A stretch of DNA of 64,000 nucleotides from contig JAVJSV010000012.1 in NCBI GenBank assembly GCA_040219235.1, positions 310,001 to 374,000 on the forward strand, given 5' to 3'. The notes under the pieces are model-generated. The model saw nothing but the letters and a program-made list of their open reading frames with translations. It did no database searches and was not told the DNA's origin. Every line of letters begins with the position of its first letter. Position 1 is the stretch's first letter. Position numbers and translations under genes: made by a program. Of the stretch, positions 13,845 to 36,816 are shown one piece after another. The DNA is from Rhodospirillaceae bacterium. Lineage in GTDB: Bacteria; Pseudomonadota; Alphaproteobacteria; Rhodospirillales; Rhodospirillaceae.

Positions 13845-13935
13845 GTCCGCTTGAACCCAAGCTCCTTACGTCCGTTTGGACTCAAGCTCTTTAGGTTCGT
13901 TTGGACCCAAGCTCTTTAGGTTCGTTTGGACCCAA
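13845..13935. repeat. 25-bp tandem repeat spanning the 3' end of the EAL gene
   Basis: Units start at 13845, 13870, 13895 and 13920; the last is partial and lies inside the coding region. The unit is close to GTTCGTTTGGACCCAAGCTC plus TTTAG. The gene's stop (TTA on the plus strand at 13916-13918) is repeated at 13891 and 13866. The period of 25 puts the three TAA stops in three different minus-strand frames. Copies diverge with distance from the gene, the nearest being the most alike. Confidence 0.92.
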
Positions 13936-28310: not shown

Positions 28311-28343
28311 ACGCGAGAAAATAAATAAAGTAGGGCGGCACAC

Positions 28344-28407
28344 ACCCAACCTGTCACCCTCGGGCTTGACCCCCCACCCAACCTGTCACCCTCGGGCTTG
28401 ACCCCCC
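28344..28407. repeat. 32-bp tandem duplication with half-palindromes
   Basis: Two back-to-back identical 32-base units (28344-28375 and 28376-28407) beginning ACCCAACCTGTCACCCTCGG, followed by the start of a third (ACCTAACC). Each holds CACCCTCGGGCTTGACC, the left half of the palindromic element seen intact nearby. Confidence 0.9.
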
Positions 28408-28419
28408 ACCTAACCGGAC

Positions 28420-28442
28420 ACCCGTGGATTTAGTCCGAGGGT
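28420..28442. repeat. Palindromic intergenic element, copy 3
   Basis: ACCCGTGGA / TCCGAGGGT stem (one mismatch and one wobble pair in nine) with the 5-base loop TTTAG, followed by CCAGGG. Same geometry as the elements at 26125 and 26186. Confidence 0.6.
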
Positions 28443-34134: not shown

Positions 34135-35808
34135 TCAATTAGGCTCACGGATACTTTTCCGCTGATAACGCTGCCTGAATACATAACGCACAGCCAATAT
34201 TGATCCGGCGATCACCCCCGTACTCACGATCAACGCGCCCGCCAGCAAGGCGACCCAATATTCCAAAAAGAAGCGTCCGAATGCATAGACGCGGTCGATC
34301 CTCTGCAAGTCGTCCAAGCCCGGAATGGGGATCATGCTTGGATCATGGTTGAGCGCCATAACCTGTTGCCTAGCAGGTGAATACGCCGGCCACGCGGGAA
34401 GCCCTGGCCCGTTGGGGTCGCCTGTTTTGGCAAAGTTTGTCCAATAGGTTGTCACCAGGGCCGTTATGTCACGCTCTCGTGACGTGGGCGGAATGCCGAA
34501 CGGCTCAAGGGTGCCAAACACGAAAGGCATCTCAACACTGTGCGGTATGCCGTGGCCGGCATACGGATGGTCAGGCGTAAATACCGGTTGATGCGAGAAC
34601 TGATAGAAAAAAGCCTTCCGTGTTCCGGCGTGTGACGCCAGGGTGGCCCACGTCCACATATTCCAGCGGAACCGCAAGTCACCTTCAAACCGCACCGCTG
34701 AAGCACGCGCCTCATCGCCGGTCAATCCCGGGTTCGGGCGCATCACCCAAACCACTGGGGGTGAAAAGTGATCTGCGAGAATATCTTCGAAATTTTCCAG
34801 CGAGATATCTTCGTCCATGAGAAACACCGCGCCCTCGTCCGCGTTGGTCCCGACCAGGATGTCAATGTCGTTATGCAGGCCCGCTTGGTAGGCGTCGTAA
34901 GGGGCGCGTGGCAAAGCGTATCCGTCGATGACCAAATGAGGATTAAACAGAGTGGTCATAAGCGCATTGGGAGTCTTATGCCGCAGGTGTTCAATAGAGG
35001 CGGCACCCGTGCGGTCCAGCCAGTCTTCTCCTTCTTTTTCCGCACCGGGCAATTTGAAATTTGGAAACAGGTCAACCGGTTCAAACAGACCGCCGCTCTG
35101 TCCAATGGCGCGTTGAAATAACCCTTCGGCGAGGGGGGAGGTTACCAGTGCACTGATGGAGATGGACCCGGACGACTGACCAAACACTGTAACGTTTTCT
35201 GGGTCACCGCCGAACGCCGCAATGTTGCGCTGAACCCACTGTAAGGCCGCGATTTGGTCGAGCAGGCCATAGTTCCCAGATGTGCCCGTGGCCGACTCCT
35301 GACTTAGGGACGGGTGCGCCAAGAACCCCAAGACTCCTATGCGGTAGTTAAAGGTGACGACGATAACGTCGTGCTTGACCAGTTTGTCTCCGGCATACAA
35401 GGGCGTCGAACCTGAGCCGTTCGTTAGTGCGCCGCCATAAATCCAAACCATGACGGGCAGGGCCGTAGAGGGCGGGTTCGCAGGGGTCCAGATATTCAAA
35501 TACAGACAATCTTCGCTCATAGGTTCTGACGGTGCGTCTGGTGGATACAGGCCCTGTTGCGGGCAGATCGGGGAAAAGCGGTCAGCGGTTTTCACACCGG
35601 TCCACGTGTTCACGGCCTGTGGCGCGCGCCACCGCAGATCACCGACAGGCGGGGCAGCGAAAGGAACGCCTTTGAAAACGCGTGCCATGCCTTCATCGAG
35701 CCCTGACACGTAACCGGTGTCTGTCATGACGGGATGAGACTGCGCCCCAGCGCACAACACCATCAGCGTAAGCAGCGTAAGCAACGTAAGTATGCGAAGC
35801 GCGATCAC
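34135..35808 (-). CDS. Exported type-B carboxylesterase with C-terminal membrane helix
   Basis: 557-residue carboxylesterase/para-nitrobenzyl-esterase family enzyme. The serine nucleophile lies in FGQSSGSIS near residue 211, the EDCLYLNIWTP segment near 95 is typical, and GHGIPHSVEMPFVFGT near 425 holds the catalytic His region. It begins with a signal peptide (LTLLTLLTLMVLCAGAQS) built from a 9-bp repeat, and ends with a hydrophobic helix (about 518-546) and a basic tail, suggesting a membrane-tethered periplasmic enzyme. Translation starts at GTG with AAAGGA upstream. Divergent from a LytTR regulator gene, with a matching binding site between them. Confidence 0.88.
   Translation of the reverse strand: MIALRILTLLTLLTLMVLCAGAQSHPVMTDTGYVSGLDEGMARVFKGVPFAAPPVGDLRWRAPQAVNTWTGVKTADRFSPICPQQGLYPPDAPSEPMSEDCLYLNIWTPANPPSTALPVMVWIYGGALTNGSGSTPLYAGDKLVKHDVIVVTFNYRIGVLGFLAHPSLSQESATGTSGNYGLLDQIAALQWVQRNIAAFGGDPENVTVFGQSSGSISISALVTSPLAEGLFQRAIGQSGGLFEPVDLFPNFKLPGAEKEGEDWLDRTGAASIEHLRHKTPNALMTTLFNPHLVIDGYALPRAPYDAYQAGLHNDIDILVGTNADEGAVFLMDEDISLENFEDILADHFSPPVVWVMRPNPGLTGDEARASAVRFEGDLRFRWNMWTWATLASHAGTRKAFFYQFSHQPVFTPDHPYAGHGIPHSVEMPFVFGTLEPFGIPPTSRERDITALVTTYWTNFAKTGDPNGPGLPAWPAYSPARQQVMALNHDPSMIPIPGLDDLQRIDRVYAFGRFFLEYWVALLAGALIVSTGVIAGSILAVRYVFRQRYQRKSIREPN
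35764..35790 (-). repeat. 9-bp in-frame repeat coding the esterase signal-peptide core
   Basis: CAGCGTAAG at 35764 and 35773, then CAACGTAAG at 35782. On the minus strand these code the LTL-LTL-LTL hydrophobic core of the signal peptide. Confidence 0.9.
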
Positions 35809-35890
35809 GGTTAACGTGGTCCTTTAGCTCTCTTTGAGGTGCGCTAAGATCGTATCGAAAGGCAGTGCAAACCGCATAGGGCTCGGACCG

Positions 35891-35920
35891 TCGGTTCATC
35901 CCGTCAGCGGTGCGGTTCAT
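35891..35920 (+). promoter_or_regulatory. Predicted LytTR-type binding site (9-12-9 direct repeat)
   Basis: TCGGTTCAT (35891-35899) and GCGGTTCAT (35912-35920) are direct repeats separated by exactly 12 bases. LytTR-domain regulators are known to bind two 9-bp direct repeats with a 12-bp spacer, with consensus close to [TA][AC][CA]GTTN[AG][TG]. The first half matches at 8 of 9 positions and the second at 7 of 9. The site lies 48 bases before the LytTR gene and 83 bases before the divergent esterase start. A weak TTGGCA / CACAAT promoter pair (35933 and 35957) follows on the LytTR side. Confidence 0.6.
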
Positions 35921-35967
35921 CACAAAAAGGGCTTGGCAAGGTCGTAGCTGCGCTTTCACAATGGGTT

Positions 35968-36816
35968 ATGAACAAAATCCCCTCGTTTTTCTCAAACTGC
36001 GGCGCCTCACTGTCGCACTGCTCAACCCACCTGGCTTTAGGCTTTGTGTATTGGCTGATTTTTCTTCTGGCGCTTGAGCCGGGCAACGTCTTGCGTGCAA
36101 TTGCTATGCAGAGAGATTTGCTGGTGGACCTGGAGATCGTGCGCATTCTTGGAGCCAGCGTGCTCGGCGCATCAGCGACACCGGTGGTGTTTCTCATGGT
36201 GCGGTTTTTTCCCGTGGCCGGGAGTTTAAAGCTGCGCAACGCCATCCTTCAAACTTTTGGCCTGGTGGCGATGGCCGTCCTGTTGATTGCCGCCTCCGTT
36301 GTCCTGGCGGCCCGTCTGCTGCCCCCTTCTGAATACCCGTTGTCCACCGACCTCCTGTTTCAGCTTAAATCTAATATTCTGATTCTGACGTTTTGCTTAA
36401 TCGGCTTGTCAGCTATTGCCCACGCAAAGTTCTTTTCTGATCAGTCTATGGGGCCCGCAGACACTCTACCTGACCCTTTCTTGTCTCATGTCATGGTTAA
36501 AACCCGAGGCGGACTCATTCGATTGGATTTGGCAGACGTGATTTGGATCGAAAGCCAGGGCAATTATCTTGCGTTGCACGCAGGTGAGGCCGTCCATTTG
36601 ATCCGAGAACCAATAACGGCATTTTGTGCCAAGCTTGATCCCTCACACTTCATAAGAGTTCATCGTGGTGTCGTCGTAGCCATCGACGCAATTCGAGATA
36701 TGTCGTCGTTATCCGGCGGTGATGCCTCTCTGACTCTGCAGAACGAGACGCGCCTGCGCGTTAGCCGCACTTACAGCGCCGCAGTGCGCGCTGCACTTAT
36801 GGCAAGGACGGATTAG
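35968..36816 (+). CDS. Membrane-bound LytTR-family transcription regulator
   Basis: 282 residues. About four membrane helices (residues 20-150, such as HLALGFVYWLIFLLAL and LILTFCLIGLSAIAHAKFF) precede a C-terminal LytTR DNA-binding domain (about 175-278). This domain shows VKTRGGLIRLDLADVIWIES, the QGNYLALH strand and FIRVHRGVVVAIDAI, all standard LytTR landmarks. There is no receiver domain, so it should sense a signal through its membrane part. It is divergent from an exported esterase gene and has a LytTR-like 9-12-9 site in front, suggesting self-regulation and control of the esterase. Confidence 0.88.
   Translation: MNKIPSFFSNCGASLSHCSTHLALGFVYWLIFLLALEPGNVLRAIAMQRDLLVDLEIVRILGASVLGASATPVVFLMVRFFPVAGSLKLRNAILQTFGLVAMAVLLIAASVVLAARLLPPSEYPLSTDLLFQLKSNILILTFCLIGLSAIAHAKFFSDQSMGPADTLPDPFLSHVMVKTRGGLIRLDLADVIWIESQGNYLALHAGEAVHLIREPITAFCAKLDPSHFIRVHRGVVVAIDAIRDMSSLSGGDASLTLQNETRLRVSRTYSAAVRAALMARTD

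What the first reader, a model, noticed from the sequence alone, without database searches (positions are those of the whole stretch)
35809..35967. LytTR 9-12-9 site between a membrane LytTR gene and an exported esterase
The gap contains TCGGTTCAT and GCGGTTCAT separated by exactly 12 bases, the geometry known for LytTR-domain regulators, with 8/9 and 7/9 matches to the published-type consensus as I recall it. One side encodes a LytTR protein with its own membrane sensor part; the other a signal-peptide esterase with a C-terminal membrane helix. Inference: a two-gene unit in which the regulator senses an esterase product or membrane change and controls both promoters.
Basis: partly seen in the sequence, partly recalled or inferred. 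Interest (0 to 1): 0.72.

Follow-up and report, generated by a model that had tools for sequence, protein, structure and literature searches.

The report
Membrane regulator, esterase, shared DNA site
A patchily distributed pair of bacterial genes, a membrane-embedded gene regulator and an exported esterase, shares a conserved double DNA site between them that very probably lets the regulator control the enzyme; it is an undescribed variant of a known regulator type and a simple test system for what such regulators sense.

Summary
The repeat is real and was tested in relatives. CGGTTCATCCC (35892-35902) and CGGTTCATCACAAA (35913-35926) lie 21 bp apart between a divergent PF00135 esterase and a membrane LytTR protein. 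The match to the general LytTR consensus is at chance level, but conservation decides: in 32 of 35 gaps (window included) a leave-one-out profile beats 300 of 300 shuffles, although the regulators are 33-47% identical to the window's. The majority half-site CGGTTCGTC is one base from the AlgR box CCGTTCGTC. On the esterase side a CANNTT element sits 36 nt from the repeat in 19 of 28 gaps (other offsets at most 4; 0 of 5000 nulls); the window itself is not among the 19. The esterase is replaced by an M48 peptidase in 3 of 36 loci with the site kept. A congener that has the esterase but no regulator shows no recognisable site. Best reading: the LytTR protein binds the repeat and controls, probably activates, the divergent hydrolase and perhaps itself. 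The signal is unknown; nothing supports esterase-product sensing. No binding or expression data exist here. Verdict: new variant of a known kind.

The parts
35892..35902 (+). box 1 of the operator, CGGTTCATCCC
   Evidence: sequence; family form CGNYYCRTCCC
35913..35926 (+). box 2 of the operator, CGGTTCATCACAAA, 21 bp after box 1
   Evidence: family form CGNYYCRTCAC followed by A/T-rich bases; the pair is the only place in the genome within 3 mismatches of the family pattern
35849..35854 (-). possible -10 element (TACGAT) of the esterase promoter, 37 nt from box 1; relatives have CANNTT at 36 nt
   Evidence: the window is one of the 9 of 28 gaps that do not fit the family form, so this is inference
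35933..35938 (+). possible -35 box (TTGGCA) of the LytTR gene, in the place of the TGGAC box of relatives
   Evidence: TGGAC-like box 34-39 nt before an ATG in 27 of 31 gaps examined; window 34
35957..35962 (+). possible -10 element (CACAAT) of the LytTR gene, 5 nt before its ATG, so the mRNA would be leaderless or nearly so
   Evidence: read by eye; spacing argument; inference
35968..36816 (+). 282-aa membrane regulator: N-terminal helical membrane domain with LEPGN motif (residues 36-40), C-terminal LytTR DNA-binding domain (183-277)
34135..35808 (-). 557-aa type-B carboxylesterase, catalytic residues Ser212, Glu325, His423 present, signal-peptide-like start (by eye), C-terminal membrane helix

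Best explanation
The gap holds the operator of a two-gene regulatory unit. The LytTR protein is a one-component regulator held in the inner membrane by its helical N-terminal domain. Its LytTR domains bind the two boxes, which lie two helical turns (21 bp) apart. From there it controls the promoter of the divergent hydrolase, most likely as an activator, because the repeat lies upstream of a core promoter that has a -10-like element at fixed distance but no clear -35. The same site lies upstream of the regulator's own, probably leaderless, promoter, so autoregulation is likely. Shown by sequence: the genes, the repeat, its conservation and spacing, the exchange of the partner gene, and a congener with the esterase but neither regulator nor recognisable site. 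Inferred: binding, binding as a pair, activation rather than repression, autoregulation, and that the signal is a hydrophobic compound or a change in the membrane felt by the helical domain.
For: Relatives were sought through the LytTR protein alone. Of 36 distinct loci (window included; 35 full-length plus the truncated L082) 31 have the esterase divergent, 1 convergent (L019), 1 rearranged (L082) and 3 a divergent M48 peptidase instead. Direct 9-mer repeats of at least 7/9 at spacing 21 occur in 23 of 36 gaps, at every other spacing from 10 to 45 in 4 to 15. Leave-one-out profile: 32 of 35 gaps exceed 300 of 300 shuffles. Most box columns carry 0.8-2.5 bits (exceptions: the third column of either box 0.1-0.2, the fourth of box 2 0.5), spacer columns 0.0-0.4. 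Esterase-side CANNTT at offset 36 in 19 of 28 gaps, best other offset 4, 0 of 5000 shifted nulls reach 19. Genome scan with the family pattern: in 12 of 14 genomes a hit with 0-2 mismatches lies at the regulator locus; elsewhere 24 hits with 3 mismatches and 1 with 2, against 16 for the reversed control. The half-site resembles the AlgR box CCGTTCGTC and the rhlI site CCGTTCATC (PMC4064291, passages). Most LytTR regulators bind upstream of the -35 and activate (PMC11347149, passage). Congener G001 has the esterase beside the rhomboid gene, no regulator found in its genome, and no recognisable site in that gap. Model: mean pLDDT 91.8, pTM 0.66, helices plus a LytTR fold.
Against: No binding or expression data. 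The two non-alphaproteobacterial cases lack the standard site: L019 (Lysobacterales) has the pair without it, and the two Duganella loci L020 and L021 have the boxes in swapped order, 20 bp apart. L065 and L070 pass the profile test on box 2; their box 1 scores below zero. The window's own -10-like element is TACGAT at 37 nt and is not among the 19; 9 of 28 gaps do not fit, and the letters CANNTT were chosen after seeing the columns (the null covers the choice of offset, not of letters). By the usual LytTR consensus the repeat points towards the regulator gene, not the esterase. G001 shows that the esterase can exist without the regulator. Only 1 of 7 genomes of the genus has the regulator. 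The correlation of esterase and regulator distances (r = 0.44, 29 loci, 0 of 1000 permutations) may only reflect shared species descent. CoxC, a membrane LytTR protein, is a repressor, so the sign could be opposite.
Confidence: 0.8

Rival explanations
1. The site serves only autoregulation of the LytTR gene (as in LRS operons); the esterase is a neighbour kept for other reasons and its promoter is independent.
For: The repeat is oriented towards the LytTR gene; a -35-like TGGAC box follows the repeat in 27 of 31 gaps; LRS repeats in S. mutans sit 4-11 bp upstream of their own -35 (PMC6193735, passages).
Against: The distance to the regulator's -35-like box varies (5-23 nt) whereas the esterase-side element is at one fixed distance in 19 of 28 gaps; the divergent partner is a hydrolase in 34 of 36 loci, the 3 M48 peptidases counted.
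Confidence: 0.15
2. The regulator represses the esterase (like CoxC) and is released by a membrane signal.
For: CoxC is a membrane LytTR repressor relieved by CO (PMC11347149, passages).
Against: CoxC's operator overlaps the -35; here the nearer box ends 36 nt upstream of the -10-like element, and the esterase -35 region is poorly conserved, which fits an activator better.
Confidence: 0.2
3. The conserved repeat is the target of some other regulator (for example an AlgR-type response regulator), and the LytTR gene and esterase are both its targets.
For: AlgR boxes are nearly identical; each genome holds other LytTR proteins.
Against: In alphaproteobacterial loci the site goes with this regulator whether the partner is an esterase or an M48 peptidase, and is nearly confined to its locus in the 14 genomes scanned; the congener without the regulator has no recognisable site.
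Confidence: 0.05
4. Chance repeat with no function.
For: The consensus match is at chance level.
Against: 32 of 35 gaps conserve it.
Confidence: 0.01

Closest known systems
HigX of Caulobacter crescentus (membrane LytTR regulator; PMC13384398: abstract, passages and section 12 read)
   Same: Four predicted N-terminal membrane helices plus LytTR domain; said to be almost universally adjacent to an uncharacterised COG4188 hydrolase gene; linked to the cell envelope; signal unknown.
   Different: The HigX motif is an 8-bp inverted repeat without spacer, here a direct repeat with 21-bp period; HigX motif came from 30 top ChIP peaks, here one or a few sites per genome at the stringency used; the partner is another hydrolase family. 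Sequence relation to HigX was not tested.
LytTR Regulatory Systems (HdrRM, BrsRM; PMC6193735, passages)
   Same: A membrane part controls a LytTR activator that binds paired direct repeats, mostly 12 bp apart, just upstream of its own promoter.
   Different: Two separate proteins in one operon; here one fused protein and a divergent hydrolase.
CoxC of Afipia carboxidovorans (PMC11347149, passages)
   Same: Membrane LytTR one-component regulator binding direct repeats at 18-21 bp intervals.
   Different: Seven-helix MHYT sensor, three repeats overlapping the -35, repressor; here no MHYT match and two boxes.
AlgR of Pseudomonas aeruginosa (PMC4064291, passages)
   Same: LytTR domain; boxes CCGTTCGTC and, at rhlI, CCGTTCATC differ by one base from CGGTTCGTC and CGGTTCATC here.
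   Different: Response regulator of a two-component system; its sites are not necessarily direct repeats 12 bp apart.
Fumonisin B1 and para-nitrobenzyl esterases (PDB 8s6d, 1qe3)
   Same: Best sequence matches among solved structures for the esterase; same family with the Ser-Glu-His triad.
   Different: Substrate of the window enzyme unknown; it has a signal-peptide-like start and, in this sub-lineage, a C-terminal helix.

Membership tests
LytTR domain family (PF04397) | Sequence match above the gathering score | tested here: met
   70.8 bits against 22.6
LytTR domain family (PF04397) | LytTR beta fold | tested here: met
   Model against 3d6w, TM-score 0.86-0.87 by target length
LytTR domain family (PF04397) | Binds paired direct repeats about 12 bp apart | tested here: inconclusive
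   A conserved operator of this geometry lies upstream; binding cannot be tested here
Transmembrane one-component transcription regulators | DNA-binding and membrane parts in one chain, no receiver domain | tested here: met
   Only LytTR found by Pfam; hydrophobic N-terminal helices
LytTR Regulatory Systems (LRS) | Separate membrane inhibitor encoded downstream of the LytTR gene | tested here: not met
   Membrane part and LytTR domain are one protein; the next gene in the window, a rhomboid, is not shared by the other neighbourhoods
MHYT-LytTR (CoxC type) | MHYT domain PF03707 | tested here: not met
   No Pfam match up to E 5 in the N-terminal part of the window protein; only sub-threshold unrelated matches in two relatives
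HigX family | Orthology to HigX; inverted-repeat motif | not tested
   HigX sequence not fetched; the operator differs from the motif printed in PMC13384398
Type-B carboxylesterases (PF00135) | Profile match and Ser-Glu-His triad | tested here: met
   377.9 bits; triad in 13 of 13 esterases aligned

The most novel reading that the evidence does not exclude
A previously undescribed family of membrane LytTR regulators (LEPGN-type helical sensor) that is spread patchily, perhaps by transfer, together with one divergent envelope hydrolase, exchangeable between a type-B esterase and an M48 peptidase, and, in alphaproteobacteria, with its own AlgR-like operator (altered in Duganella, not seen in Lysobacterales). 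The sensor reads a lipophilic compound or the state of the membrane directly inside the bilayer and switches on a single dedicated hydrolase: a minimal one-sensor, one-operator, one-enzyme circuit. HigX with its COG4188 hydrolase may be a cousin of the same plan.
Probability: 0.4. Interest if true: 0.65.

Novelty: new variant of a known kind. Interest (0 to 1): 0.52.

Why it matters
The LytTR proteins of alphaproteobacteria are mostly membrane proteins (as PMC13384398 reports from an earlier survey), and the HigX paper calls its own regulator's role still enigmatic; what such proteins sense is largely open. This one comes with what looks like a single main target, a defined operator and a promoter model, and with natural controls (partner exchange, a congener without the regulator), so signal and mechanism can be attacked with one reporter. 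The motif also gives a way to find further members.

Tried and rejected
Consensus match as evidence: rejected, chance level. Esterase-product sensing: not supported, because of the M48 exchange. C-terminal esterase helix as a conserved part: rejected, 3 of 13 (one of the 13 is the esterase of G001, which has no regulator). Plasmid carriage: no tblastn match at E 1e-20 in the plasmid collection. A larger conserved operon: in a crude ORF clustering of the window and 18 stretches (17 regulator loci and the second-site stretch L086) only the regulator, the esterase and the M48 gene recur in three or more; L083 and L084 share further neighbours with each other. A HigX-type hydrolase beside other LytTR genes of G447-G449: inconclusive, dropped. 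A second 2-mismatch site in G495: may be chance, only looked at. Fold relatives of the helical domain: none significant; one search gives one weak match of it to a calcium transporter, E 0.0088. Prior description of the LytTR-esterase or LytTR-M48 pair: not seen in the listings of paper searches (20 of 24 listed; 20 of 89; 5 of 5; 12 of 18; 12 of 22; 0; 1 of 1; 1 of 1); open-licence papers only, and of the listed papers only PMC11347149, PMC6193735, PMC10269533, PMC4064291 and PMC13384398 were opened, in part.

Limits of the counts. The genome searches scored only the best candidates of a first look in each genome (for example 6, 10, 8), so numbers of genomes are lower bounds. The LytTR proteins with partial matches were not examined. 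Rows dropped before counts: L082 (regulator truncated, rearranged) from the profile test and the promoter counts, though not from the 36 gaps of the spacing count; L019, L020, L021 and L065 from the promoter counts as they lack the standard pair; the 3 M48 loci from the esterase-side count (looked at: L026 fits in four of four letters, L066 in three, L073 not); L053, L063 and L070 from the esterase tree and distances (short or split). Duplicates (L018 = L053, L007 = L070, L001 = L006 = L025 = window) counted once. Box-2 places were chosen by best match to a box-2 string (L059 set by hand), so the box-2 columns are biased, and the profile rows were placed that way. The TGGAC-like box (TGGAC, TAGAC or TTGGCA within 30 nt of box 2) was chosen after seeing the data and an ATG was sought only 28-42 nt from it. 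The null tests do not correct for relatedness, except that near relatives were left out of the profile.

Full report
What was checked. The exact repeat is unusual (39 of 20,000 shuffles of the gap) and its exact form occurs once in the genome, but only relatives could decide.

Relatives. They were sought through the LytTR protein alone: 7 records in the named genome collection; then, with a nine-row profile, full-length matches in 15 of 96 genomes of one family of the same class (16 loci; the call's own tally of 16 genomes includes one partial match), 2 of 73 genomes of the window's family, 14 of 249 of the family of Caulobacter sp. 602-2 (its own genome and C. endophyticus included, one of the 14 truncated), 1 of 294 of the family of Duganella sp. 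BJB476 (its own genome), and 2 of 385 of the class (16 have some match). The class is Alphaproteobacteria: L018, titled so, has the same contig coordinates as a locus of genome G538, marked same class. This gives 36 distinct loci, the window and one truncated locus included. In the 31-row alignment identity to the window protein is 33-47%, and the tree has long end branches (median 0.67 changes per column). The esterase lies next door, divergent, in 31 of 36; in L019 it is convergent; L082 is a rearranged remnant; in L026, L066 and L073 a divergent M48 peptidase takes its place. On the regulator tree the M48 label needs two changes, one origin not ruled out. No other neighbour is widely shared.

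The operator. Aligned on the repeat, most gaps read CGNYYCRTCCC, ten variable bases, CGNYYCRTCAC followed mostly by AAA. Repeats of at least 7/9 at spacing 21 are found in 23 of 36 gaps; at the other spacings from 10 to 45 in 4 to 15. A profile made without the tested locus and its near relatives scored above all 300 dinucleotide shuffles in 32 of 35 gaps. The misses are L019 (nothing) and the two Duganella loci, where the boxes stand in reverse order at 20 bp; L065 and L070 pass on box 2 alone. So the standard site is shown for alphaproteobacterial loci only, while the gene pair reaches a betaproteobacterial genus and a Lysobacterales bin. The first-stage 9-mers are this motif, shifted one base to the left. 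It is close to the AlgR box CCGTTCGTC and the rhlI site CCGTTCATC (PMC4064291, passages), and the geometry is usual for LytTR proteins (PMC11347149 and PMC6193735, passages). Scanning 14 genomes with the family pattern, 12 had a hit with 0-2 mismatches at the regulator; elsewhere there were 24 hits with three mismatches and one with two (G495), against 16 for the reversed control; G495 and G029 had no hit at their regulator.

Promoters. Reading from box 1 towards the esterase, CANNTT (at least three of four letters) begins at offset 36 in 19 of 28 gaps; no other offset exceeds 4, and the best of 5000 shifted nulls was 8. Offset and letters were noticed before the test; the null covers the offset only. 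This looks like a -10 element at a fixed distance from the repeat without a clear -35, as expected of a promoter that needs its activator. The window does not fit it: it has TACGAT at 37. Towards the regulator a TGGAC-like box stands 34-39 nt before an ATG in 27 of the 31 gaps examined (none found in L058, L070, L073, L077), which puts the start of transcription at or near the ATG: a leaderless message. Its distance from box 2 is 5-23 nt, mostly 10-16 or 20-23, about one helical turn apart. So the rigid side is the hydrolase side.

Natural controls. The three M48-partnered loci keep the site (profile scores 33.5, 27.0, 29.1); L026 also has CACCTT at offset 36, L066 fits in three of four letters, L073 does not. 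In congener G001 the esterase (66-71% identical, with a C-terminal helix too) lies next to the rhomboid gene as in the window, but no regulator was found in that genome (95% complete) and the gap shows no recognisable box (best match to the box-2 string 10 of 14; only that string was scored). In the other five congeners neither gene was found in the stretches fetched; in G004 and G006 the upstream alpha/beta hydrolase gene adjoins the rhomboid gene. In the esterase tree G001 and the window are sisters in a four-row group whose other two members have the regulator, so loss of regulator and site in G001 is the simpler reading, though not shown.

Proteins. The regulator model (mean pLDDT 91.8, pTM 0.66) has four long helices, the second broken, the last running towards the LytTR domain; hydropathy alone counts five segments. 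Foldseek finds LytTR domains (3d6w, ComE, AgrA) and nothing significant for the helices. The helical part has no Pfam family above cut-off and carries a LEPGN motif in which the P is invariant, and L, E and N are at least 90% conserved, in 31 rows, while the G varies. The esterase has its triad in 13 of 13 aligned, and its best matches among solved structures are fumonisin B1 and para-nitrobenzyl esterases.

Judgement. The operator, the gene pair and the promoter-like element on the hydrolase side are well supported by sequence; binding by this LytTR domain is inference with high probability (0.8). The sign is more likely activation. The signal is unknown. It works like LRS and HigX-type regulation but is not an LRS (that needs a separate membrane inhibitor) and is not shown to be HigX. 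The paper searches made (listings partly capped) listed nothing that describes the pairing; the nearest is HigX beside a COG4188 hydrolase (PMC13384398, section 12).

Noticed in passing
window 13845-13935: Tandem array of a 25-bp unit, 3.6 copies (GTCCGTTTGGACCCAAGCTCTTTAG), which also gives the hit with fewest mismatches to the LytTR-like consensus pattern in the window; function unknown.
   Followed up: no
window 28343-28423: 32-bp tandem repeat, 2.5 copies.
   Followed up: no
L002-L005: The four other LytTR genes found in the same genome also encode hydrophobic N-terminal parts by eye, but without the LEPGN motif; their neighbours differ.
   Followed up: partly
L007 / L070: In G029 the partner esterase is split between two frames; either a decayed gene or an assembly error.
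   Followed up: no
L082: A truncated regulator abuts the C-terminal part of an esterase, as if the gap and both gene starts had been deleted.
   Followed up: no
L086:5794-5828: A second operator-like site (2 mismatches) in G495, upstream of what look by eye like membrane-fusion and ABC efflux genes; could be a second target of the regulator or chance.
   Followed up: partly
L020, L021 upstream gaps: Duganella loci have the two boxes in reverse order, 20 bp apart.
   Followed up: no
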